A stretch of DNA of 22,718 nt from a virus, in IMG/VR virus record IMGVR_UViG_3300021225_000052, positions 1 through 22,718 of that record; one strand, given 5' to 3'. The translations under genes were made by a program, and so were the position numbers. Of the stretch, positions 37 through 21,152 are shown piece by piece. The notes under the pieces are model-generated. The model was not told where the DNA came from, did no database searches, and saw nothing but the letters and a program-made list of their open reading frames with translations. Positions within the stretch are counted from its first letter, which is position 1. Each line of letters starts with the position of its first letter.

Positions 37-342
37 ATGAAGTTACCAACGCGTATGCGTGTCGGCAAGAAGTGGTACAGCGTGGAGGTGGTGGAAGCCA
101 TGCTCCACCGCAAAGACATGGGGCGTACGTTCTATCCACAGCAGTGCATCCGGCTTGGCAAGTCGAGCAACATCACAGGCCGCAAGTTCACCAAGGACGA
201 AATGGCGGACACCTTCTGGCACGAAGTCACACACGCCATACTGGAAGACATGGGACAGCACGAACTCAACAAGAACGAGGCGTTTGTCACCCAGTTTGCC
301 AACCGATTAACTGTAGCCATCAAGACTGCGAAGTTCGAATGA
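37..342 (+). CDS. Small zincin-like protein (HEVTH motif)
   Basis: A 101-aa protein with a strong ribosome-binding site. It carries HEVTH at residues 62-66, which fits the HExxH zinc-binding motif of metallopeptidases. A Glu at position 81 in the following helix could be the third ligand. The short length and lone HExxH core resemble the minimal phage metallopeptidase-like proteins sometimes grouped with ImmA/IrrE or SprT families; no other domain is visible. Its stop overlaps the start of the nuclease gene (ATGA at 339-342), so the two are translationally coupled. Proteolytic activity and target are unknown. The motif is seen directly, while a peptidase role is inferred. It could be an inactive zinc-binding scaffold. 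Confidence 0.75.
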   Translation: MKLPTRMRVGKKWYSVEVVEAMLHRKDMGRTFYPQQCIRLGKSSNITGRKFTKDEMADTFWHEVTHAILEDMGQHELNKNEAFVTQFANRLTVAIKTAKFE

Positions 343-8420: not shown

Positions 8421-11400
8421 TTACTGGCGTGTGGTTTTATCGACTGCCTTGAGGAAGGCTCGGGCGTATTCCGTCTGAGCCTTGTCGATCCGCGCCAGCA
8501 TCTCATCCTTCTGCTCTGTGGTCATGGTGGGGGATGCCTCAATCTGACGGCGGTACTTGGCGAACTCCCCAAGCTTCTGCTGTACCGAGCCAGACACCGA
8601 TGCTGCCCCCAGCTTGTCAGCGTGTTCTTGGGCAAACGCTCTGGCTTCCGCTGTCTTACCCTGCTCCACGAGACGGTTGAACGTACCCTTGGTCTGCTGG
8701 ATATTGAGCATTGCATCGTACGCTTCGTCCAGTGTGCCACGGCCTTCGACGGGCTGGAACAAACCACCAATGAACGGTGTCTTGCTGGCCTTGAGCGATG
8801 GCTGTGCGACATCGGCTTTCATCTCGGTGTTCAGTATCGGGTTGGCCAACTGCACCAAAGCGATGCCTGCGCCGCCCGTGTAACCACGGATGAGGTAGTC
8901 GATGCTGATTGGCGACAAACCTTCTTTGCCCGTAAGCTGCTTGATGGTCTCGCTACCTGTGATGCTACCGAGCAACTTGGCAAACTCTGTGGTGGACTCG
9001 CGTGAACGCTCAGCCGCCAGCATTTTCTGCTCACGTTGGGACTCGATGTCGCCACCAAAGAACGACTTGCCAAGGTACACCTCGGTGATAGGCTTGATAC
9101 CCTGTGGCAAGCTGAATGGGTTAGTCTGTGCCACAAGTTTGAGCCAGCCGCCCACGGCCTTAGATGCCTTCTCGTCGTTGGACGCCATGTCAAGGATAGC
9201 CTCGGGCAACGCTTTGAACACATAACCCAATTCAAACGGAATAGGTACGCGCAAGGGCTCGTCAAAGCCGGGCACATATACAAACCAGTTTCCGTAGCGT
9301 TCTTCAGGCTTAGCGCGTTTGTACGCCTCATCATCGGACATCATGGCGGCGTAGGCCATTGTGCCTGCGGCAAGCATCAAACCGCGAGCCATCATCTTCT
9401 GCTTAATCTTAAGCTGGTCGCTGAATGGCATCTGGCCTGTGTATGCGCGGTAGAGCACATCCAAACCTTGGATCTGAGCGTTGAAGAACGGAATGATGAT
9501 CGACAACGCTTGCATGCTGGGCGACAAACCACGGCGGCTAAAGTTCATTGACTCAAGCGTGCGCAGTAGCGCGGCTTGCTCGGACATACCCTTGGCCAAG
9601 GAGTCTTTGTAAACCACAGCGCGGGTAGACGCATCGCCTTGCATAGCGAACGCATCCAGTCTTGCCATGAGCTTAGACCAACCGGATCGGCCAGAAGTAA
9701 TCTCTTTAAGGAACTTAGACGCATCGCGCTGGTCGCCAGAGAAAACGTTGCTACTGATAGCGCCTGAACGCATCAGCTTGGATTCAACTTCGCTGCGGCC
9801 GGCCACCATACTGGCCAACTCTTTGAAGGAACTCAGCACAGGCGTAGCGTCTGTACCGGTAGTCAGCCAAGCATTGAGCGGGTCACGTACAGTCTGACGC
9901 ACAGCGTAGGCGGGGTTCTTCACGACAAAATTACGCAGGATGTCCGCAGGGATGCCCAGCATCTTGATGGCGGCTGGCATCGTAGTTTTGATACCTTCCA
10001 TGCCCTTGATGATAAGTTCCGCTGGGATGCCGTACTTGTCCTTGTCGATGTAGACAAAGTGATCTTTGCCGTTGACTTTGAAGCGCACAGTGCTGTCGCT
10101 TGCAGGGCCAGAACCTTCTCCAAGCGCTGTTGCAATGCCCATCTTTTTGAGCAAGAACGCAGACTCTTTAATCATCTGGTTGCGAAGCGCCATGTCGGTC
10201 AGCATGAACGTGTTCTGCACAGAACTTGTGAAGATCGGCAGAATGTTCTTGTTACCACCCACCAACTCTTTCAGTTGTGGTTCTGTCTTAACGTTCCCGA
10301 TGCGTACAGGCGTCTCTTTATCCACCATCAGCTCGATGTTGCCACTGTTGCTGTTGACGCGGTAATACGGGATGTAGGGTACGGACTTCAGTTCCTTGGC
10401 CAGCTTCTCTGTGATAGCGCCAGTCTGTACGAGGAAATCAATCTGCCCGTCGTTGAACTCTTTGTAGATACGTGCTGCTTCAAGGACAGCGTCTTTCTTT
10501 GTCTTGTCGCTCTCAAGCAAGCGCATGACATCGTTGTACTCCTTCTCAGCCAGAGCGGGGTTCTCGTAGTTGAGCTTCTCCCAGCCTTTGACTTTGGCAC
10601 GCTCGCCTGCCACGTATGCGGTCAGGACGGCTTCGGCCTCTGAGTCGTTGGCAAACTTGCCCTTGTGCAGAGCCTCTGCCACTTCCAACATGTTAGCGCC
10701 CTTGACGCTGTCGTAAACGTAGCCACCGCCTTCGCCTTTGCGTAAAACCAGACGTCCGTTGGTCAGCGCTTGACCCGCATACTGGCTGCGCTGTTGGCCA
10801 AATCGCAAATAAAACTCTGCGTTCTGTGCTTCCAAAGAAGTGATAACGTTGTCGGCTACGCCACGTTTGAAGGCTTCAGACAGGGCTGCGTCTTTGTCGA
10901 TGAACTGAACGCGACCAGTCAGACCCATGACGTTGCCAAGCAACTTGTCTTTGAGTGAAGGCTCTTTGGCAATGAACGAAGCGCCGTACTGCGTGGGCTC
11001 CTGCTTGGTGCGGAAAGCCATCTGGCCATCAGCCATCCTGTATGGGCCAATCGTCTTGTTCTCAAAAGCTTTGCGAGACTGCTTCAAAGAGTAGAAGATG
11101 TCAGATGTTGATAGTACAGAGGAAGAAGTGAAGCCCAGATCACGCAAGCCTGCGCGAATCATGCCGACCAACTCCTTGAGCCATCGGCCAGCTTTTTCTT
11201 TAAAGCTCTCAGTCACGCGAGCTTCTTCGGTGTGCGCAATGATCTCACGCAAAACCTGAAGTTTTTGGACAGCCTCGCTCTTGCCCTGCGCCGCGTTGAA
11301 CTGTGCCGTGCGTGTGACTTCGTCCAAGAGTTTCTGGCCACCAATGTCAAGTGCCAGTTGACGCAGGTCAGTCTTGTTGGCGTATGCCTGCAAGCGTGGG

Positions 11401-14400
11401 ATACCAATGATGGTGTCAATACCGTAGTGGCCAACCAACTCGTGGAACACCGTGGCTTCCAAGTCTTTCAAGTCAGCGTGCTGGTCGCCCACCACCAAGA
11501 CCGTACCGTCACTGAACACAGCGCCCTGCACCATAGCGGTGGTTGGGTCAACGCCTTCTTCCGACATACGCTTGAGCAGCGACATGGGGATTTTGCCGGG
11601 GTTTGCGGCATATACCAGCTTCACATTATTAGGCAGTTTACTCTGCACTTTTTCCATGAAGTCAGCGGCTTGTCTTGCGTCGACTACGTCGCCCTCTTGC
11701 TCACGGGTACGGTAGGCTGTGCCACCTTCAGAGTCGTTGATCTCTTTGATGAGGCGCTCTTGTTCCTTGACAGACACTTTGCCGGGTACGCGTAATGGTG
11801 TTGGCAACACCTTCTCCGCCATGGGAGGCTTGCCTGTACGTGCGGGGCCAGCGGCTTCCGCAGTACCCTTGCGTGTCTTGATTTTGACGGTCTGAGAACC
11901 TTCTTTGACGGCTTCGCCCGTTGCAGTACGCAACTCTTTGGGAGCGCGGTTGACCTTGCGAGTCTCTTGTGTTGTGCGCTTGGAAGGTGCTTCCTGCTTG
12001 CTCTGAGCCAGCGTCTCTTGGAAGTACGCAATCTGCTCTTTGAGCGTGGCCTTGTACTCAGGCGTTTTCTTACCGAGCTCGATGGCCTTGGCTGTGTACA
12101 TGTCCGCAACTGATCTGCGGAAGTCTTTCACTCGTGGATCATCGTCGCCGTAGCGGTCTTCCAGCGCTGTCATGCGCTTGGTTAAGTCTTTCTCAAACTT
12201 AGCAAACTCAGGCTCTTTCTCGCCCAACTCACGGGCGAGGACACGCATCTGCTCGGACGCTTCGGCTTCTTTGCGCACGTCGCCTGAATTGATACGCTTG
12301 GCTGTCTTGGCGGCGCGGCTGATTGTTGGCCTAGTAGCGACCTCACCCGCTGCCTTGCGGGATTCCATTTCCGTAGCCAAAACTTTTTTGTACTCAGGCG
12401 TGGCTTTGCCAAGCTCAATGGCTTTATTTTCCAACACCGTTGCACGGCGATCAATCAAGCGCAAGACTTTTTCGTCGTCTTCTCCCAGCTTTTCAGTCTG
12501 GGCAGCAATGTAGTCGTCAACTGTTTTTTCGTAGGCTTTATAAGCAGGTTTCTTTTTGCCAAGCTCAAGCGCCAACGCGTACAAGTCTGCGGACTTTTCT
12601 TTCTTGGCTTCCTGTTCGGCTTTGGCTTTTGTAGCCGCAGTACTTTTCTTCTCCACGGGTACTGTGGTGTACAGCTTGGCGTGAATGGCTTCGATGGCTT
12701 TCTCAACGGGTTTGAGGTTTGTCTCGACCAAAGCATCGCGTCGCTTTGTCAGGGCGTCGATCTTGCGCTTGAGGTCGTACTTCTCTTTGGCATCCAACTG
12801 CCGTGCGCCACGGGCTTCGGCTTTACCTTGCTTGGCTTTAAGGTTCTCCACCTTCTCGGCCATGGTGGGCGTAGCCAAACCGCTTTCAAGCTGGTCGCTC
12901 AAAGTGTTCAGTTGCTCGTTGTACTCGTCAATTCTTTGCAGTACAGACTTCTTGGCGTTGCCTTGGCGGGTTGTGATCTTGCGAAGTTCTGCGTCAATCT
13001 GGTCTTTGATGAGTTCGTACTCAACCGCCGCTGCACCACCCTTGTCGTAGACGTCTTGGAGCTTGACGTTTTCCATGATAGGCAAGCCGTTCTCGCCAAC
13101 AACAACTTTGCCTTTTCTATCCAAGAGAGGGCGCTGGATGGTCTCGTTGTTTGTGCCGTTGTCAAACTGTGCTTTTTGCTTGTTGTCGTAGTACTGACCA
13201 AAGTAGTCAGCACGCTCACGCTTCGTACCCGCTAAGTCAAGGCGGTCATCCAGTGCTTTAATCAGGTTGTCGGTACTGGTGCGCTCGGCTTCAACTTTGG
13301 CGTTTCGCTCTTTGCGCTGACGCTGTTCTTCAATCTTGGCGGCGCGTTCAATGGCTGACTCGTCACCGTTGTTGATGGCTGTGCGAAGCAGGTTGGCTTC
13401 GCCAAACAATTCCATGGTCTTGGTGTCGGCCTTGGGTTCTTCTTTGAGCACTTCTTTGGGCGCAGCAGTAGGCGGCTGCTCCACGGCCAAGGCTTCTTCC
13501 TTGGTCTGTGCCACAGGAATGGGCGCTTCCTCTTGCGTAAACAACTCACGGGTCTGGCCACGTTGCTCAAGGTTGGCTTGCTTCTCTTCCAGCACAGAAC
13601 GCTTCTGACCGAAGCTGTCCATGAGGTCGGTGCGCTCTTTCTTGAGTTCATCAATCTTGGCTGTCAGTTTGGGTAGCTCACCAAATGAGCCTAGCTGCGC
13701 TGCGTCCGCAAGCTTCTTCTGAGCGTTCTTGAGCTTGGTGTCGATGCTGGCAAGCGCTGATTTAGACTGGGCTTCCAACTCCTGCGGGGTGAGCGTTGTG
13801 CCACCCAGACCTTCGATGGTCTGTGCAGACTTCTCAACTTCCTTCTCAAGCGGCTCGTACTGGGCGTACAACTCGTTGATCTTGGCGGTGTCGCCTGCGT
13901 TGGCGGCATCTTGCAACTGTTTTTGCAGGTCTGCAAGTTGGGTTTTAAGCTTGTCGTGTTGCTCCATCGCCCGACCCAAGTTGGGCTTCTCAGGCATGAC
14001 GCGGCCAGCCATGACCGCACCGGGGCGTTCAGTCTCACGAATACCTTCAGGCAATACCACGGGAGGTTTGGGAGCTTCTCCGGTAGGCGCAGGCAAAGCC
14101 AACATGGGCTCGGGTGCTGGCAGTTGGGCTTGGGCAGGAGCGGCTTCGGCAGGGGCAGGCTCGGCTACTGGAGGCGTAGGAACTTGCAACGCTTGGGCGG
14201 CTTGGGCGGCAGCTTCTTGCTCTGCGGCTTGTCGTGCAGCAACTTCGTCTCGGGCTGCACCTTTTTCAGACAAACGACCAACGGCACCCAGAGGGCCAAG
14301 CAAACCAACTTGGTATGCGGTCTGGCCATACTCTTTCATCGCATCAGGAGAAGTCAGGGACAAGCCTGCCTGTGCGCGTTCCAGCATTTGCTGGGCAATC

Positions 14401-15200
14401 TCTGTTGGCACTTCGGCCAACACGCCGGTGGCTGTACCTTTTGCAAGGGTAGCCAGTAGTTTCTCGTCGGCAAGTTTTGCCGCTTGTTCTGCGGTCTTGC
14501 CAAAGAAGGCTTTCTCAGGGATGCCAGTCAGCTTGCTGACCAGTTTGCCACCGAAGGGAATGAAGGCTTGTGCCACATCCAAACCAGCTTGGGGGATAGC
14601 GGCTGCCGCCGCAGTGCCTGCCTCGATCTTGAGGGGTTCACCACGGGCAATTTGTTCTTGGGCTTGGCGCTCAAGGTTGCCACCGTACTGCTGAATCAGG
14701 GAGGGGAGAAATGCGCCTGCAAGACCACCGACCACACCACCAGCCACAGTACCAGCAGGGCCAAGAGCCGTACCAGCCATAGCACCAAGACGAGCACCAC
14801 CAAACGAAGTGGCAAGGTTAGGCGCTTGCTCAGCAATAGCCAAGGGGATTTGACGACCGACTTCTTTAGCGGCAGAGAGAACGCCGTCCTTATTGAAGGC
14901 TTCTTTGACTTTCTCCATGCTGACTTGGTCAGCGTACTTATTGGAGATTTCTTCGCCGCGCTCCAGCCCGGCCCTAGCAGCTTCTTCGGGGGAACCAAAA
15001 GCACCGGAAACACCGGTGCGCAGTTGGCTTAATGTAGACTCAGCGCCCTTACCGAGCGCGGCCATCAGCCCTTTCTTGGGCTTTGGCTGGGATGCTAAAT
15101 GTTCTTCAAGAGCCGCAATAACCTGTGCGTCGGATGCGCCTTCAGGCCCCTCCACATCATAGATACGCCCGTCCGGGCCTTGCACGCTGTAAATGGGCAT
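8421..15200 (-). CDS. Giant polyvalent virion protein: zincin + LPD38-like C-terminus
   Basis: At 2259 aa this is the longest gene in the window; an AAGGA site precedes the ATG. Order of parts: a short N-terminal module (YSVQGPDGRIYDVEGPEGA, 4-22); a Gly/Ala-rich membrane-like stretch (about 115-175); an Ala/Pro linker (about 330-390); a long charged coiled-coil region (about 405-1100) with an internal duplication; a zincin domain with HELVGH at 1253-1258 and a likely third ligand in EIIAHTEE (Glu1319); and a large C-terminal region with PYIPYYR (1608-1614) and a VRDPLNAWLTTG segment (Asp1773) leading to NFSRRGLSP, typical of the LPD38/PLxRFG-type phage polyvalent proteins. Such proteins are packaged and injected with DNA and can act on host defences. 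It follows the transglycosylase by 18 bases. Family placement is by recalled motifs; the peptidase role is inferred. Confidence 0.85.
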   Translation of the reverse strand: MPIYSVQGPDGRIYDVEGPEGASDAQVIAALEEHLASQPKPKKGLMAALGKGAESTLSQLRTGVSGAFGSPEEAARAGLERGEEISNKYADQVSMEKVKEAFNKDGVLSAAKEVGRQIPLAIAEQAPNLATSFGGARLGAMAGTALGPAGTVAGGVVGGLAGAFLPSLIQQYGGNLERQAQEQIARGEPLKIEAGTAAAAAIPQAGLDVAQAFIPFGGKLVSKLTGIPEKAFFGKTAEQAAKLADEKLLATLAKGTATGVLAEVPTEIAQQMLERAQAGLSLTSPDAMKEYGQTAYQVGLLGPLGAVGRLSEKGAARDEVAARQAAEQEAAAQAAQALQVPTPPVAEPAPAEAAPAQAQLPAPEPMLALPAPTGEAPKPPVVLPEGIRETERPGAVMAGRVMPEKPNLGRAMEQHDKLKTQLADLQKQLQDAANAGDTAKINELYAQYEPLEKEVEKSAQTIEGLGGTTLTPQELEAQSKSALASIDTKLKNAQKKLADAAQLGSFGELPKLTAKIDELKKERTDLMDSFGQKRSVLEEKQANLEQRGQTRELFTQEEAPIPVAQTKEEALAVEQPPTAAPKEVLKEEPKADTKTMELFGEANLLRTAINNGDESAIERAAKIEEQRQRKERNAKVEAERTSTDNLIKALDDRLDLAGTKRERADYFGQYYDNKQKAQFDNGTNNETIQRPLLDRKGKVVVGENGLPIMENVKLQDVYDKGGAAAVEYELIKDQIDAELRKITTRQGNAKKSVLQRIDEYNEQLNTLSDQLESGLATPTMAEKVENLKAKQGKAEARGARQLDAKEKYDLKRKIDALTKRRDALVETNLKPVEKAIEAIHAKLYTTVPVEKKSTAATKAKAEQEAKKEKSADLYALALELGKKKPAYKAYEKTVDDYIAAQTEKLGEDDEKVLRLIDRRATVLENKAIELGKATPEYKKVLATEMESRKAAGEVATRPTISRAAKTAKRINSGDVRKEAEASEQMRVLARELGEKEPEFAKFEKDLTKRMTALEDRYGDDDPRVKDFRRSVADMYTAKAIELGKKTPEYKATLKEQIAYFQETLAQSKQEAPSKRTTQETRKVNRAPKELRTATGEAVKEGSQTVKIKTRKGTAEAAGPARTGKPPMAEKVLPTPLRVPGKVSVKEQERLIKEINDSEGGTAYRTREQEGDVVDARQAADFMEKVQSKLPNNVKLVYAANPGKIPMSLLKRMSEEGVDPTTAMVQGAVFSDGTVLVVGDQHADLKDLEATVFHELVGHYGIDTIIGIPRLQAYANKTDLRQLALDIGGQKLLDEVTRTAQFNAAQGKSEAVQKLQVLREIIAHTEEARVTESFKEKAGRWLKELVGMIRAGLRDLGFTSSSVLSTSDIFYSLKQSRKAFENKTIGPYRMADGQMAFRTKQEPTQYGASFIAKEPSLKDKLLGNVMGLTGRVQFIDKDAALSEAFKRGVADNVITSLEAQNAEFYLRFGQQRSQYAGQALTNGRLVLRKGEGGGYVYDSVKGANMLEVAEALHKGKFANDSEAEAVLTAYVAGERAKVKGWEKLNYENPALAEKEYNDVMRLLESDKTKKDAVLEAARIYKEFNDGQIDFLVQTGAITEKLAKELKSVPYIPYYRVNSNSGNIELMVDKETPVRIGNVKTEPQLKELVGGNKNILPIFTSSVQNTFMLTDMALRNQMIKESAFLLKKMGIATALGEGSGPASDSTVRFKVNGKDHFVYIDKDKYGIPAELIIKGMEGIKTTMPAAIKMLGIPADILRNFVVKNPAYAVRQTVRDPLNAWLTTGTDATPVLSSFKELASMVAGRSEVESKLMRSGAISSNVFSGDQRDASKFLKEITSGRSGWSKLMARLDAFAMQGDASTRAVVYKDSLAKGMSEQAALLRTLESMNFSRRGLSPSMQALSIIIPFFNAQIQGLDVLYRAYTGQMPFSDQLKIKQKMMARGLMLAAGTMAYAAMMSDDEAYKRAKPEERYGNWFVYVPGFDEPLRVPIPFELGYVFKALPEAILDMASNDEKASKAVGGWLKLVAQTNPFSLPQGIKPITEVYLGKSFFGGDIESQREQKMLAAERSRESTTEFAKLLGSITGSETIKQLTGKEGLSPISIDYLIRGYTGGAGIALVQLANPILNTEMKADVAQPSLKASKTPFIGGLFQPVEGRGTLDEAYDAMLNIQQTKGTFNRLVEQGKTAEARAFAQEHADKLGAASVSGSVQQKLGEFAKYRRQIEASPTMTTEQKDEMLARIDKAQTEYARAFLKAVDKTTRQ
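12009..12587 (-). repeat. Diverged tandem duplication inside the giant protein
   Basis: Residues 872-952 and 984-1064 align without gaps at a 112-residue period. Both contain an early ELG(K/E)K.P motif (879 and 991), a central G(E/D)DD..V segment and a late KAIELGK.TPEYK motif (927 and 1039). The four ELG motifs fall at 879, 929, 991 and 1041, so each unit may itself be two half-repeats. The repeats are at protein level; the DNA has diverged. Confidence 0.75.
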
Positions 15201-15218: not shown

Positions 15219-17492
15219 TTATTGTGGGCGGCTCCCGAGGACTTTAAAGCCAGCAGTGGGAGCTGGTGAACTCATTGTACTGGGAAGTTCTAAACCTGCC
15301 AAGGGGAAGTAGAACTTCGCCAAAGACAGACGTTTTGCTTCGATTTGTTCTGGTGTTGCCGCTGCGCCACCCAGTGAAGCTTCCCACTTCGCCATCTCGC
15401 GTTGAATGTTGTCCATAGCGTGCTGGCGTGCAGCCGCGTTGTACTTGACGCCGGACTCCATGGCTTTGGATTCGGCTTCGGCTTTTGTGCCCAAAGCGCC
15501 GTAGTACTTCTTCATGATGTCCTTGTACTCAAGGTCAGTCTCGCGCTTCTCACGCTCTTTCTTAGCGCTCAAAGTTTGAATACCGGACTCGCCCAAGGCA
15601 GTCATAAAGTTTGGCGACTTGTTAGCCATCAGACTCAAGCCCAGCATCAGCAAGTCTTCGTTGTCAAAACCTTTGCGGTCTTTGGCAGGGGTTGCATCTT
15701 TGGCTGCGGCAATCACATCAGAAGGCTTAGGCGCGGCTTCAGGCGTAGCGCCCATGTCGTAGAACTTACTGAGGTCTTCGCCAGAAGTATTGATGCCTGT
15801 GGCGGCTTCTGGTGCAACGCCTTTTTGCGCTTCGATACTGGATGGTGTCACGCCTGCAAGCGCAGAAATACCACGGGCACGTGCGGCTTCAAGTTGGCTC
15901 TCGTCCATAGCACCAGCGTACTTGCTGAAGTCAGGAGTATTCTTAGCTTCCTGTGCGGCTTTCTCCCAAGCAGCGGCATCACGTGCGGCTTTCTCGGCAG
16001 CAGACAAGTCCTCAAACGCTGCGCCAACACTAGCACGGGTTTTTTCCGGCATGATGTCCGTGCCTTCGGCGTTGGAAATCAAGGTAGTCTTTTCTCCGGA
16101 AGGTTTGTTTTCCAAACGCAAATTGGAAACTTTGGCTTTTTGCTCAGCCGCAGCTTGTTTCATCTGCTCAGCAATACCGGCGATACCTTCAGCGGAAGGA
16201 CGGGCGACAGGGCCTTTTGGCGTGCCCGCACCGATGCGTGCAATGTATGGAGGAATCTTCAGGTCTTCCAGCGTTTGGCCAAAGCCTTCAGAGATTGTCT
16301 TACCGCCCTCAGTGCGGGGCTCGTAAGTTACCTGTGCGGCTTTCTCACGGAAAGACTTCTCCATGGCGGCACGATCTGCACCTTTACCAGAGAACACGTT
16401 GGGCAACTGCTCAAGCACAGCCGCACCGCCAGCCGTAGGAATAGCCAGTGCACCAGTAAGGTACTGCAAAGCTGTCTCGCCTGTACCAATCACGCCTTGG
16501 TTGCCTGTGAGGTACCGCTCTTTTTCAGGAGCGGGTGCAGGGGCGGCTTGGGGTTGAGCAGCTTGTGCCGAAGCAACGGGCATGGCAGATGCCATTTTTG
16601 TGGAAAAAGTCTGCATGACTTCACCAACGGTTTTCTTACCATCGCCGAACAACTTGGAGTTGCTCTTGATAATCTTATCTGCGTTCTCAGGGTCGGCAGA
16701 CTTGAGCACCTGCGCCATGGTCATATCGGGGTCGGCTTGCAACAAGCGTGAACCTGTACCACGGCCAAGTACATGAGTTGCGTACAGTTCTTCAGGAGAA
16801 ACATCACGCTTTAACTGCTTGCGTAAAGCTGCCGCGTCTTCTCCCAGAACCTTAGCGCCGACACGCACGTTCTCAAACGGGTCTTTGCGTTTCTCAGGAT
16901 CGCCACCGCCTTTTGTAAAGGTGCGGTTAATCAACTGCATCAAGCCTTGTGCAGACGAAGTCTTGCTCTGGGCATCAACTTTACCGCTACTTTCTGCTTG
17001 AATAACTGCGCGAAGCGTAGATGGTGGGATGCCGTTGAGCTTGGCTTGCTCGTCAATATAAGCATCCAAGTCACGAGGCACGGCAACGCCGTTTTTATAT
17101 CCGGGCACGCCACCAGCGGCCATGCGAAGCACAGGCTCACTGCGCTGGGCAAAGTCAAACATTGAGCCGCCTTGGGCCATGCCTTCATCGTCGTAGCCAG
17201 CAATACCGCCATCAGCCATGCGCTGAATATTAGGGGCAGGCAAAGCACCAATGCCTTGCTCTTCTGGAAGCTGACCCATCTGTGCCAAGGCTGCATCGGC
17301 TACTTTGGGTTGAGGCATGCCTGCCATCTGCGCTTGCGCAGCTTGGCGCATCTGCTTGCGACGGCCGTCTTCGGAGATGATAAGCGGCAGAACGTACGGG
17401 TCGTTCTTGTGCATCATGGCCATCTGCTTCAGTGCAGCATCGGGCAATAGCGCGATCTGCGATGTAATCTTTTCGGAGTTTGGAAGTGCCAT
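15219..17492 (-). CDS. Internal virion protein with lytic transglycosylase domain
   Basis: A 757-aa protein. Residues 140-245 are an SLT-type lytic transglycosylase: the catalytic Glu167 lies in AVIQAESSGK, followed by SSAQGLMQL (179-187) and YATHVLGRGTG (237-246). These enzymes cut the glycan strand of peptidoglycan; in short-tailed phages the domain rides on an ejected protein (as in T7 gp16) and opens a local hole for DNA entry. The first 130 residues carry three Gly-Gly motifs (MADGGIAGY at 92, MAQGGSMF at 105, MAAGGVPGY at 124). The rest has a hydrophobic segment (about 340-365) and long Ala/Lys/Glu helices to the end. It follows the Gln-rich gene by 5 bases. The ribosome-binding site is weak (GAAG), so coupled translation is likely. 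Enzyme family is strong; ejection role is from family knowledge. Confidence 0.9.
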   Translation of the reverse strand: MALPNSEKITSQIALLPDAALKQMAMMHKNDPYVLPLIISEDGRRKQMRQAAQAQMAGMPQPKVADAALAQMGQLPEEQGIGALPAPNIQRMADGGIAGYDDEGMAQGGSMFDFAQRSEPVLRMAAGGVPGYKNGVAVPRDLDAYIDEQAKLNGIPPSTLRAVIQAESSGKVDAQSKTSSAQGLMQLINRTFTKGGGDPEKRKDPFENVRVGAKVLGEDAAALRKQLKRDVSPEELYATHVLGRGTGSRLLQADPDMTMAQVLKSADPENADKIIKSNSKLFGDGKKTVGEVMQTFSTKMASAMPVASAQAAQPQAAPAPAPEKERYLTGNQGVIGTGETALQYLTGALAIPTAGGAAVLEQLPNVFSGKGADRAAMEKSFREKAAQVTYEPRTEGGKTISEGFGQTLEDLKIPPYIARIGAGTPKGPVARPSAEGIAGIAEQMKQAAAEQKAKVSNLRLENKPSGEKTTLISNAEGTDIMPEKTRASVGAAFEDLSAAEKAARDAAAWEKAAQEAKNTPDFSKYAGAMDESQLEAARARGISALAGVTPSSIEAQKGVAPEAATGINTSGEDLSKFYDMGATPEAAPKPSDVIAAAKDATPAKDRKGFDNEDLLMLGLSLMANKSPNFMTALGESGIQTLSAKKEREKRETDLEYKDIMKKYYGALGTKAEAESKAMESGVKYNAAARQHAMDNIQREMAKWEASLGGAAATPEQIEAKRLSLAKFYFPLAGLELPSTMSSPAPTAGFKVLGSRPQ

Positions 17493-17497
17493 GTTCT

Positions 17498-18526
17498 TCA
17501 GCCCATGTTATGGATAGCTAATTCTGCCAGACCAGCAGGACGCGCATCAACCGCGCCGCCTTTCTTAAAAGCGCCAAGTGCTTTGCCTGTCAAGCCAAGA
17601 CCCGCAACTTGCTGCACAGCGGATGGCGGGGTTGCGTAAAGATTAGAAGACTGCTGAGTCAGTGGCAAACCGCGAAGCATGTCGGACATGAAGCCCAACT
17701 GTTTGTACGGATAGTTTTGTGCGTTCAGGAAGTCCTGATATTGATTATTCAGGATGTTCTGTGTTTGCTGTTGTTGCTGCAAACCGTACTGGTTCTGCAT
17801 CTGGTTGATGCCCATGTTCTGTTGGTACTGGGTGTTGCCCAAGTTACCCAGAGTGTTTGCGCTTGTCAGCGCTGTTTGCAGTCCTTGCAGACCTAGACCG
17901 GCACCAAACTGGCCTTGTTGTGCGTTGAGGTTAGCCGCAGCTTGCGTAGCCGCTTGCTCTGCATTGAACTGCCCCATGCCTTGTTGGTAAGCGTTTTGCA
18001 AACCCTGTGCTTGGATGTCGCCTTTTTGACGGGCTAAATTGGCTGCGGCTTGCGCACGCATGATGTAGTCACCACTACCCCCAAACGCTCCCGCACGAGC
18101 GGCCTGCGCACCCTGTGCTTGGGCGGCAATATCTGCTTGCCGCTGGGCATTTTGCTGCTGGCGATTGACCACGTTCTGCATGTACGGAGACATGTAGCTT
18201 TCGGCCATCTCAGGGCTAGTAAACGATTTTGTTTGGAACGGGTTGTATGTGTAGCCAGTATTAAGCGCTCCAAGTCCAGCAGAACCTGCCATGGCCGTTG
18301 CATCTTGCAACTGGGGTGAGCCTTGCATCAAAGCAGCGTTTTCGTACGACTGCTGCATCAATGGCGTGAACTGCGCTACACGGTCGCCCATGTACTGCAT
18401 GTAGGGGTTCTGATTGATGTCAGTCAGACCTTGGGCATTGCCCAGTAACTCCTCAACGTACGGACGGGCGTAGTCGGGGATTGTTGTCTGTGTGATATTC
18501 GATTGTTGCAATACTGGATCAGCCAT
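17498..18526 (-). CDS. Gln/Ala-rich putative internal virion (ejection) protein
   Basis: A 342-aa protein with an AAGGA site 7 bases before the ATG. It is mostly helical and rich in Gln, Ala, Asn and Gly. The middle has the pattern MQNVVNRQQQNAQRQADIAA followed by ARAGAFGGSGDYIMRAQAAANLARQKGDI, which recurs in phage proteins encoded beside internal virion proteins. A poly-Gln run lies at about 250-255. It ends with KKGGAVDARPAGLAELAIHN, another copy of the Gly-Gly motif seen in its neighbours. There is no enzyme motif. Long Gln/Ala helices that change partners suit proteins that leave the capsid and rebuild a channel in the host envelope, like T7 gp14-16. The gene sits between two other large virion genes with gaps of 5 and 10 bases. 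Function is inferred from context. Confidence 0.75.
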   Translation of the reverse strand: MADPVLQQSNITQTTIPDYARPYVEELLGNAQGLTDINQNPYMQYMGDRVAQFTPLMQQSYENAALMQGSPQLQDATAMAGSAGLGALNTGYTYNPFQTKSFTSPEMAESYMSPYMQNVVNRQQQNAQRQADIAAQAQGAQAARAGAFGGSGDYIMRAQAAANLARQKGDIQAQGLQNAYQQGMGQFNAEQAATQAAANLNAQQGQFGAGLGLQGLQTALTSANTLGNLGNTQYQQNMGINQMQNQYGLQQQQQTQNILNNQYQDFLNAQNYPYKQLGFMSDMLRGLPLTQQSSNLYATPPSAVQQVAGLGLTGKALGAFKKGGAVDARPAGLAELAIHNMG

Positions 18527-18536
18527 GATCTATTCC

Positions 18537-21152
18537 TTACGCGGGAAGATATTTGTCAGCGCGGCTGTTGGCCGCTACTTTGTTTTTGCCTGTGGTCTTG
18601 CCGCGTGCTTTCTGCACACGATCCATCATGGCGTAGAGTTTCTTAGCGCCTGCATCGGTAGAGCCGTTGCCCAACTCAGACACGATGCGGGCAGGGACTA
18701 CGAACTCCCCATCGGCAAGGCGGGCAGGTTGTTGCTTGTTACCAATCGTTGCAGGGATGCTATCAGACACGCCATCACCGGGGCCTTTGAGCAATCGACC
18801 GCCATCAGAGTAAGAACCCAAAGAGCCTAGACCACCACCCATGGCGTAGCCCATCATGCCGCCACCAGCGGCAATCTGAGCGCCTGTCACATCGTACGTA
18901 TTACCATTACTTGTGTGGTATTTCCCATCGGAGCCCAGCGTAGCGGTATCCGGATTTCCGTTAGCGTCAATAACGTTAATAGTTTTGGCCGTTGTTAGGG
19001 ATGTTGTATCCGCAGCGCTTGCCGCGTTGCCGCTCGTAGTACTTGATACGATTTCGCCGTCCTTGCCGTAAGACAAGAATTTAGGCTTGTATTTCATGCC
19101 CGCAGACCAGTATGGGCGCATGATGCCTGTAGAGCTTGAAGCCGCTTGACTCTGTACAGGATACTTACCGCCGCCTTTACCCATCAAGTAATCATACGCC
19201 GCAAGCGAATCGCCTGTTTGACGGTTGTACATCTGGTTGAATTCAGCAATTGTTCTAGGTGCTGTTGGCACATACCCCAAACTGCCGCCGCCCTTGGTGT
19301 AGGCGTTACGAACTTGCTCCATGCCTGTGAATCCGCCAACTGGGATGCCGGGAATGACAGGAGAGGTTGTAATCGTGCCGTTGGGGTTGACTGTAGCGCC
19401 GCCGCCTTCAATAGATGGGCCCGTTGTGCCGGACACGCCTACGGGAAGCGTAGTGGCAGGAGCCGTAATCAGACTTGTGGGTGTAGTAACGGTTGTGGTC
19501 GTGTTCTGGGTGGCATTGATGTTTGGTACGCAAGACTTTCCATCAGCGCTAGGGTGGTATCCGGGAGGGCAAGTAATTGCAGTACTTGTAATGGTGTCGT
19601 TGCCTGTACCGCCTGTGATGGTGTCGTTGCCTGTGCCGCCTGTGATGGTGTCTTTGACTACTGTCTTGGGCGTGAACAAATCACCAAAGGTTTTGCCTGT
19701 TGCGGCGTTAACATCCGCTACGCTAACGCCAGCGCGAGCCATTTCTGCAAGCGCCGCGTCTTGTGCTTGCGCCACAGTCATTTTTCCGGAGTTAATCAGG
19801 TTCTGCAACCCACTGGAAACGTAGTTAATGTTGCCATACAGACCTTCCAATCCGCCTTGATCCCCGGGCAATGCACCTGCTGTATAGCCAATATCAGTGT
19901 AAAGACTTACAGGTTTTCCAGTACTTGCATCAATAATCCCGCCAGTAAAGCCCGCGTCACTATTCGCATGCGTCAAAGCATATTGAGCGCCTTGAGACAG
20001 CCCCGCATTCTGCATGGCATTAGCGAGTGCCTGATTTTGTAGACCGACAGCGCCAGTCGCGGCTAAAAATTCAGATGCGTCTGTTCCGGGTGCAACAAGC
20101 GTGTTTACAAAACGCTTTTCGTAGTCCGCTTGCTGTCCCTGTGTGCCGGTAGCACGAGCAATGTCAGCAGCAGACACGCCAAACGTTTGCATGTCTTTAG
20201 CAATCTGTGCGTCTGTCAGGCCGGGGGTCTTAAAATAGTTAAAGATTTCTGTATCAGTTGGGGTGTAACCGCCGCCAGCCAAAGCCACAATACCGCCGCC
20301 AGCCATACCGGGAGAACGGGGTTGCAAAGCGGCCATCTCACCTGTCTGTGGGTTTGTGTATGCGTCAGAAAAACTGCGACCGCCCCACTCACTGGCTTTA
20401 ACGGGAGCCAAAGATTTGTAAGTTTGGGTGTAAGGATCGTACAGCTTCTGACGAATGTAGCCTGTGTCGGTAGGCGTTGCTTTGGATGCTGGTGTAGTTG
20501 TCTGAATAGCGCTCAGCACAGGCAGTCCTGCGGCTGCAATAGGAGACCAGTTCTGTTTAGCAAAACTAAGAGGGTCCGCTGCTGCGGCCTTAAGTCCTGT
20601 GCTGGCGGCTTCAACCCCAGACATTGTGGCGGGGTTAGCGTTGCTTTTTAAGAACTCGTTGAAAGCTTGGCCAGACGAACCTTCAGCAGCGGCAATGTCA
20701 CCAAACACCTGTGGGCCTGTTCCTGTGGTCGAGCCTGCCAAAGCTTCAGACAGCCCAGCACCTGTGCCGGCAGTGGCCAAGCCTTCTGCCAATCCCGCAC
20801 CACCATACGCACCCAATCCGGCCATGAGACCGCGAGACAAACTGCCAGTAGCCAAGGTAGTCAAACCGCCGGTGACCAGACCTGCCGTACCAGCGCTCAA
20901 ACCAAGACCCGCAATACCAAACGCACCGGGGCCAAGAAACGCGCCAAGGGCGATGGGGGCAACAGCTTTGAAGAGATCAGAAAGGAAACCGGCTTCGGGT
21001 AAACCCGTATGTGGGTTGATGGTCAGTGTGCGACCGTTGGCTTCGGCAAATTTCTGTAGGCGCTGGACTTCGTCCGGCGTCATGTGTACGAGTAAAGAGT
21101 CGTCACCGCGACCATGCGCGGCTACCTGTTCGGCAAACTTATGCAGGCTCAT
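18537..21152 (-). CDS. Large Gly/Thr-rich putative internal virion protein with RTX-like and CPPGY segments
   Basis: An 871-aa protein with a GAGG site. The N-terminus (HMTPDEVQRLQKFAEANGRT, then LTINPHTGLPEAGFL) is a module common to phage internal virion proteins. It is followed by a long Gly/Ala/Leu hydrophobic region (about 63-125) that could insert in membranes. MAGGGIVALAGGG is at 283. Two segments, TFGVSAADIARATG (about 318-340) and RAGVSVADVNAATG, repeat a helix motif. RTX-like TITGGTGND units fall at 502-519, and CPPGYHPSADGKSC has Cys528 and Cys541, which could form a disulfide. The end has AMGGG (770-774) and a conserved-looking tail with SDSIPATIGNKQQPARLADG. It is probably ejected or forms part of the internal core. 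It is non-enzymatic by appearance, and the family is recognised only in outline. Confidence 0.75.
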   Translation of the reverse strand: MSLHKFAEQVAAHGRGDDSLLVHMTPDEVQRLQKFAEANGRTLTINPHTGLPEAGFLSDLFKAVAPIALGAFLGPGAFGIAGLGLSAGTAGLVTGGLTTLATGSLSRGLMAGLGAYGGAGLAEGLATAGTGAGLSEALAGSTTGTGPQVFGDIAAAEGSSGQAFNEFLKSNANPATMSGVEAASTGLKAAAADPLSFAKQNWSPIAAAGLPVLSAIQTTTPASKATPTDTGYIRQKLYDPYTQTYKSLAPVKASEWGGRSFSDAYTNPQTGEMAALQPRSPGMAGGGIVALAGGGYTPTDTEIFNYFKTPGLTDAQIAKDMQTFGVSAADIARATGTQGQQADYEKRFVNTLVAPGTDASEFLAATGAVGLQNQALANAMQNAGLSQGAQYALTHANSDAGFTGGIIDASTGKPVSLYTDIGYTAGALPGDQGGLEGLYGNINYVSSGLQNLINSGKMTVAQAQDAALAEMARAGVSVADVNAATGKTFGDLFTPKTVVKDTITGGTGNDTITGGTGNDTITSTAITCPPGYHPSADGKSCVPNINATQNTTTTVTTPTSLITAPATTLPVGVSGTTGPSIEGGGATVNPNGTITTSPVIPGIPVGGFTGMEQVRNAYTKGGGSLGYVPTAPRTIAEFNQMYNRQTGDSLAAYDYLMGKGGGKYPVQSQAASSSTGIMRPYWSAGMKYKPKFLSYGKDGEIVSSTTSGNAASAADTTSLTTAKTINVIDANGNPDTATLGSDGKYHTSNGNTYDVTGAQIAAGGGMMGYAMGGGLGSLGSYSDGGRLLKGPGDGVSDSIPATIGNKQQPARLADGEFVVPARIVSELGNGSTDAGAKKLYAMMDRVQKARGKTTGKNKVAANSRADKYLPA
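19591..19652 (-). repeat. 27-bp tandem repeat encoding RTX-like units
   Basis: Two full copies (19591-19617 and 19618-19644) differ at one base, and a third copy begins at 19645. On the coding strand each 27-bp unit reads TITGGTGND. GGxGxD is the calcium-binding signature of RTX repeats, but two units are far fewer than a normal RTX roll. The near-identical DNA indicates a recent duplication. Confidence 0.85.

What the first reader, a model, noticed from the sequence alone, without database searches (positions are those of the whole stretch)
8421..15200. Giant injected-protein candidate combining a zincin and an LPD38-like region
One 2259-aa chain carries HELVGH (1253-1258) with a plausible downstream ligand helix (EIIAHTEE, Glu1319), an LPD38-type C-terminus, a membrane-like N-terminal stretch and a long coiled coil. 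Polyvalent proteins of phages are proposed to enter the host with the DNA and act on host defences, so an active protease here would be a candidate counter-defence or maturation enzyme. Motifs are seen in the sequence; the role is inference from that protein class.
Basis: partly seen in the sequence, partly recalled or inferred. Interest (0 to 1): 0.7.

Follow-up and report, generated by a model that had tools for sequence, protein, structure and literature searches.

The report
Giant phage ejection protein with peptidase
A short-tailed-phage genome fragment encodes a 2,259-residue protein that is probably packed in the virion and injected into the host, carrying a zinc-peptidase domain of a kind already described in such giant phage proteins; the less expected part is that relatives repeatedly swap this peptidase for a different one in the same place.

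Summary
The gene is real: 2259 aa, minus strand, 15200 to 8421. Pfam LPD38 matches at residues 1957-2144 (E 3e-32). The zincin is real, but HELVGH is HExxxH, not HExxH (residue 1257 is Gly; the second His is 1258). H1253, E1254, H1258, E1319 and E1326 are invariant in relatives. The isolated domain models at pLDDT 91, with the motif and the Glu on separate helices; PDB matches are weak, but those on the alpha-beta half include zincins. The HExxxH class of polyvalent-protein metallopeptidases was described in 2017, so this is a new member of a known kind.

Context favours an ejection protein. It is the last gene of a structural operon, after a lytic transglycosylase and an ejection protein, as in phage N4, where gp50 sits there. 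The N4 gp50 C1 domain is a zincin that aligns by profile (E 2e-5). The E. coli phage PTXU04 homologue, gp25, is essential in laboratory strain BL21, which argues against counter-defence as the protein's main job.

New here: relatives at 57-68% C-terminal identity carry an N4-C1-like HExxH zincin in the same slot (at least three switches), and two cultured phages show no recognisable zincin. Protease activity, substrate and virion location remain inferred.

The parts
8421..15200 (-). Giant LPD38 protein, 2259 aa, 246 kDa, predicted ejection protein
14691..14768 (-). Residues 145-170: hydrophobic Gly-rich, membrane-like stretch
   Evidence: Kyte-Doolittle window 19, maximum 1.66
11811..14003 (-). 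Residues about 400-1130: mostly charged, K/E-rich, presumed coiled coil; conserved N-terminally in near relatives
   Evidence: composition only
11046..11732 (-). Residues 1157-1385: HExxxH zincin-like metallopeptidase domain
11427..11444 (-). Residues 1253-1258 HELVGH: predicted Zn ligands H1253 and H1258, general base E1254
11223..11246 (-). Residues 1319-1326 EIIAHTEE: invariant E1319 (predicted third ligand), A1322 and E1326 on the following helix
8424..11033 (-). Residues 1390-2259: constant C-terminal module of the family (phrog_9854 match 1576-2252)
8769..9332 (-). Residues 1957-2144: Pfam LPD38 (PF18857)
   Evidence: E 3e-32
15219..17492 (-). 757-aa protein with SLT lytic transglycosylase domain, same operon, 18 bases upstream
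17498..18526 (-). 342-aa DNA ejection protein family (phrog_4287, E 1.8e-16)

Best explanation
This is the giant member of the ejection-protein set of a podovirus-like phage (inferred). A constant C-terminal module of about 860 aa containing LPD38 serves packaging and ejection (inferred). The N-terminal Gly-rich stretch and charged helical part cross or line the cell envelope after ejection (inferred). Between them sits a zinc peptidase of the HExxxH polyvalent-protein class: H1253, H1258 and E1319 hold the metal and E1254 activates water (residue conservation shown, chemistry inferred). The peptidase most likely makes limited cuts in its own chain or in co-ejected proteins during or after entry, freeing parts of the giant or remodelling the conduit, rather than attacking one specific host defence. 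My confidence is about 0.75 for ejection protein, 0.75 for a competent peptidase, and 0.45 for self or co-ejected substrates.
For: Ejection: last gene of the reverse-strand structural operon, directly after an SLT transglycosylase and a phrog_4287 ejection protein; 91 of 97 loci with enough upstream DNA keep the ejection-protein homologue and 68 the SLT protein, 65 directly adjacent (several loci are overlapping fetches of one contig). N4 has the same layout, with gp50 last and convergent to the replication genes; gp50 is known to be encapsidated and ejected (PMC12633501). The N4 gp50 C1 domain aligns with this zincin across both motifs, hhalign E 2.1e-5, against 0.029 for the zincin-free C2 control. 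The PTXU04 homologue gp25 is essential on BL21 (homology). Peptidase: H1253, E1254, H1258, E1319, A1322 and E1326 invariant, including the general base that a purely structural zinc site would not need; domain model pLDDT 90.8, pTM 0.84, motif at the end of one helix and E1319 in the following long helix. Self or co-ejected substrate: the slot accepts two different zincin types in otherwise homologous chains, at least 3 switches, which fits a role tied to the chain; phage P1 DdrB is proteolytically processed (PMC5512222).
Against: No virion proteomics; in PTXU04 the bands identified from virions were gp7, gp10, gp11 and gp12, not gp25 (PMC6563267). N4 gp50, with an intact HExxH, is packaged unprocessed (PMC5512222), and the N4 vRNAP paper reports no evidence of degradation (PMC12633501). 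PDB fold matches for the zincin are weak (Foldseek none under E 0.001; zincin rows Z 3.0-3.9). No recognisable zincin in two LPD38 phage proteins. Metal geometry was not measured.
Confidence: 0.5

Rival explanations
1. Counter-defence effector: the zincin cleaves a host protein (defence component or stress factor) after injection.
For: Polyvalent proteins as a class are proposed to act on host defences, and some zincins there may be effectors (PMC5512222). Relatives carry other effector-type domains: ddrB-ParB and methyltransferase in phiARM81mr, InPase and a weak ART match in Marinobacter. Swapping of zincin clades in one slot could reflect an arms race.
Against: The PTXU04 homologue is essential on laboratory strain BL21. 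The catalytic pocket is strongly conserved across the family. No defence target is indicated by any data here.
Confidence: 0.25
2. Structural or regulatory zinc domain without proteolysis, like the C1 part of the N4 vRNAP C-terminal region, which lies in a region needed for encapsidation and belongs to an autoinhibitory domain.
For: N4 gp50 is packaged unprocessed although it carries HExxH; its C-terminal domain regulates the polymerase; this domain is a profile relative of C1.
Against: The general base Glu1254 is invariant in all 48 aligned relatives (rows filtered on the pattern) and the HE of both zincin types is kept in 33 of 33 contigs. In N4 too the HExxH is invariant across 10 sampled relatives.
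Confidence: 0.2
3. Virion maturation protease that acts before or during packaging, as proposed for the MPTase in phage P1 DdrB.
For: P1 DdrB is processed before packaging (PMC5512222); the gene lies in the morphogenesis operon.
Against: No zincin is recognisable in Bacillus Pony and Pelagibacter HTVC034P proteins that keep the C-terminal module, so a general maturation need is unlikely; N4 gp50 is packaged whole.
Confidence: 0.2

Closest known systems
HEXXXH class of zincin-like MPTases in polyvalent proteins (Iyer et al. 2017, PMC5512222)
   Same: HExxxH, downstream Glu helix, location inside a giant phage protein with LPD domains
   Different: Nothing in kind; here with a neighbour set, a domain-level model and evidence of clade exchange in one slot
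Escherichia phage PTXU04 gp25 (2198 aa putative polyvalent protein, PMC11879866)
   Same: HExxxH zincin (HEIIVH), LPD38 C-terminus, 24% identity over 759 residues
   Different: Diverged N-terminal half; upstream genes annotated only as hypothetical proteins
N4 vRNAP gp50 (Schitoviridae), C1 and C2 domains
   Same: Giant ejection protein, last gene of the reverse operon, zincin followed by a large C-terminal region
   Different: Carries an RNA polymerase; HExxH rather than HExxxH; its C2 does not align with the LPD38 module above control level
Dipeptidyl peptidase III, MEROPS M49 (from own knowledge: HELLGH and a downstream EECRAE/D-type motif)
   Same: HExxxH spacing and nearly the same hexapeptide
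   Different: No sequence or fold match found here; different overall architecture

Membership tests
Pfam LPD38 (PF18857) polyvalent proteins | Profile match above the gathering score | tested here: met
   112.7 bits against cut-off 27, full-length 1-189/189
HEXXXH class of polyvalent-protein MPTases | HE, three residues, H in the core helix | tested here: met
   HELVGH 1253-1258, invariant in 48 of 48 aligned domains (rows were filtered on the pattern)
HEXXXH class of polyvalent-protein MPTases | Conserved Glu on the next conserved helix | tested here: met
   E1319 invariant, in model helix 153-170
HEXXXH class of polyvalent-protein MPTases | Zincin fold: helix, three-stranded sheet, two C-terminal helices | tested here: inconclusive
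   Order of elements agrees; weak 3D matches over model 13-107 to zincins 3e11, 6fpc, 7xyo, Z 3.0-3.7
HEXXXH class of polyvalent-protein MPTases | Zn binding and peptidase activity | not testable with these tools
   needs protein
Canonical HExxH zincin families in Pfam | HExxH and a family profile match | tested here: not met
   HExxxH present; no peptidase profile up to E 10 for the domain
Podovirus ejection proteins | Gene beside other ejection-protein genes | tested here: met
   phrog_4287 and SLT genes adjacent; kept in 91 and 68 of 97 loci
Podovirus ejection proteins | Present in the virion and ejected | not testable with these tools
   needs mass spectrometry
N4-type virion RNA polymerase | T7-like RNA polymerase domain | tested here: not met
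   no polymerase match in the 2259-aa chain
N4-type virion RNA polymerase | C1 zincin-like domain | tested here: inconclusive
   profile-profile E 2.1e-5, probability 76.6, with HExxxH instead of HExxH

The most novel reading that the evidence does not exclude
Podovirus ejection giants have a dedicated peptidase slot, filled by interchangeable zincin clades (HExxxH type or N4-C1 HExxH type), whose proteolysis is a step of genome entry; the N4 vRNAP C1 domain would then be a member of the same slot rather than an oddity.
Probability: 0.3. Interest if true: 0.7.

Novelty: new member of a known kind. Interest (0 to 1): 0.4.

Why it matters
Why giant ejected proteins carry conserved peptidase motifs is open: N4 gp50 keeps HExxH in every relative sampled, yet is packaged uncut. 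A family in which two peptidase types replace each other in one slot, with no recognisable zincin in some phages, and with an essential, genetically tractable E. coli homologue (PTXU04 gp25), makes the role of proteolysis in genome entry directly testable.

Tried and rejected
Dipeptidyl peptidase III kinship, suggested by HELVGH/HELLGH: no sequence or fold match appeared. PDB sequence-profile searches with the zincin gave only sub-threshold hits; the most relevant was 3e11, a predicted zincin, E 0.2 and 1.4. Foldseek of the 1110-residue model against PDB gave no significant match; VIA rows covered only the last helices. Foldseek of the isolated zincin: none below 0.001. Homology of the LPD38 module with N4 C2: E 0.079, no better than negative controls at 0.029 and 0.055, so dropped; a short look-alike (GD..TR..Y...EA...NFSRR against NYDRLPGR) is unproven. 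Pfam scans of L030 and L045 (which have extra residues after the zincin) and of the 3227-aa L104 gave only LPD38. A virion-proteome paper for an LPD38 giant was sought and not found. The metal-site distance test could not be done, because model coordinates are not exposed.

Full report
Check of the observation. The window is a 22,718-base fragment of a virus record. The giant ORF is on the minus strand, 15200 to 8421, 2259 aa, 246 kDa. LPD38 is significant at residues 1957-2144 and phrog_9854 at 1576-2252. The proposed zincin is there, but with HExxxH spacing: H1253, E1254, G1257, H1258. Glu1319 opens EIIAHTEE as stated.

Is it more than chance? The chain is His-poor, and about 0.008 HExxH/HExxxH motifs are expected. 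Relatives were fetched with non-motif seeds. In their alignment H1253, E1254, H1258, Y1259, G1260, E1319, A1322 and E1326 are among 13 invariant columns of 220. In the wider 48-row alignment the invariant columns are H, E, G, H of HELVGH, then E1319, A1322, E1326 and one Gly. Those rows were filtered on HE..[GA]H and many were found with motif seeds, so the Glu and Ala columns of the first alignment are the independent part.

Structure. The domain alone (1157-1385, 48 rows) gives mean pLDDT 90.8 and pTM 0.84. HELVGH lies at the end of helix 88-103 of the model and E1319 in helix 153-170, after a start of alternating strands and helices, the order expected of a zincin. Foldseek finds no significant PDB match. 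Among VIA rows that align to the alpha-beta half, known or predicted zincins appear (3e11 Z 3.7, rmsd 3.8, 73 aligned; PPEP-2 6fpc Z 3.0, 77 aligned; M61 7xyo Z 3.0, 73 aligned), as well as 1j7n (Z 3.9, 81 aligned). These Z values are in the range of common arrangements, so the fold is supported only weakly. Metal geometry could not be measured. The larger 1110-residue model matches many predicted phage LPD giants across its length (66 with E below 0.001), PTXU04 gp25 among them.

Context. On the minus strand the order is virion structural protein (phrog_3287), two further genes, ejection protein (phrog_4287), SLT transglycosylase, giant. On the plus strand replication genes converge on it: PD-(D/E)XK nuclease, SNF2-type helicase, DUF927 primase-helicase. 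Of 97 loci with at least 2.5 kb upstream, 91 keep the ejection-protein homologue and 68 the SLT protein (some loci are overlapping fetches of the same contig). Phage N4 has the same arrangement around gp50, its giant ejected RNA polymerase (PMC12633501). The N4 C1 domain, a zincin-like domain in a solved structure (PDB 9PNR, present in the sequence library), aligns with this zincin by profile over both motifs, E 2.1e-5, against 0.029 for the C2-only control.

The exchange of zincins. In close relatives the N-terminal part and the C-terminal 870 residues align (57-68% identity C-terminally for L030, L034, L036 and L045), but the zincin in between is HEGTHAA or a variant, a canonical HExxH. This second type is clearly the N4 C1 type (E 1.3e-8, probability 95.5; control 0.055) and hardly aligns with the HExxxH type. 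Of 33 contigs found by C-terminal seeds and long enough, 25 have HExxxH, 8 HExxH, none lacks both. On a tree of the C-terminal module the types need at least three changes, forced by well-supported branches. Vibrio phage 1.205.O has both types in one chain, and Bacillus Pony and Pelagibacter HTVC034P keep the C-terminal module with no HExx(x)H motif or profile match. So the zincin is an accessory but strongly kept and exchangeable module. Some HExxH relatives also carry roughly 700-900 extra residues of unknown nature between zincin and C-terminus.

Function. The homologue PTXU04 gp25 (HEIIVHYG, LPD38) was knocked down by CRISPRi-ART: a large drop in plaquing, in a screen whose assay strain was BL21, and its expression was toxic or interfered with infection (PMC11879866). 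An essential role on a laboratory host favours a core step, such as packaging or ejection, over counter-defence. It does not test the zincin itself. The 2017 description of polyvalent proteins already lists an HEXXXH class and proposes processing before packaging, processing after injection, or host targets (PMC5512222); N4 gp50 is packaged uncut, P1 DdrB is cut.

Verdict. An ordinary-class but well-anchored finding: a new member of a described kind, with a corrected motif, a probable place in the ejection machinery, and one less expected feature, recurrent exchange of peptidase type in a fixed slot.

Noticed in passing
window 37-342 (+): Separate 101-aa ORF with WHEVTHAIL, a canonical HExxH, matching phrog_1233 (unknown function, E 1.2e-10) and no Pfam family: a second, stand-alone zincin-like candidate.
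   Followed up: partly
L157 (Vibrio phage 1.205.O) 925-10317: One 3130-aa chain carries both zincin types: HELIHAA at 1059 (N4-C1 type) and HEILAHHG at 2092 (HExxxH type).
   Followed up: partly
L030, L034, L045, L051: HExxH-type giants have about 700-900 extra residues between zincin and C-terminal module; the two checked with Pfam (L030, L045) match nothing there.
   Followed up: partly
L011, L055, L063 and L020: The giant ORF is split into two adjacent ORFs (509+1180 aa, 1034+866 aa), by frameshift, stop or assembly error.
   Followed up: no
window 18537-21152 (-): 871-aa structural-operon protein with RTX-like GGTGNDTIT repeats (HemolysinCabind E 2.4e-6) and a cEGF-like stretch.
   Followed up: no
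L155 (Pelagibacter phage HTVC010P) 5592-7275: The LPD38-like match lies under short annotated genes (gp19 and gp20 overlap), much shorter than the 1229-aa protein of HTVC034P.
   Followed up: no
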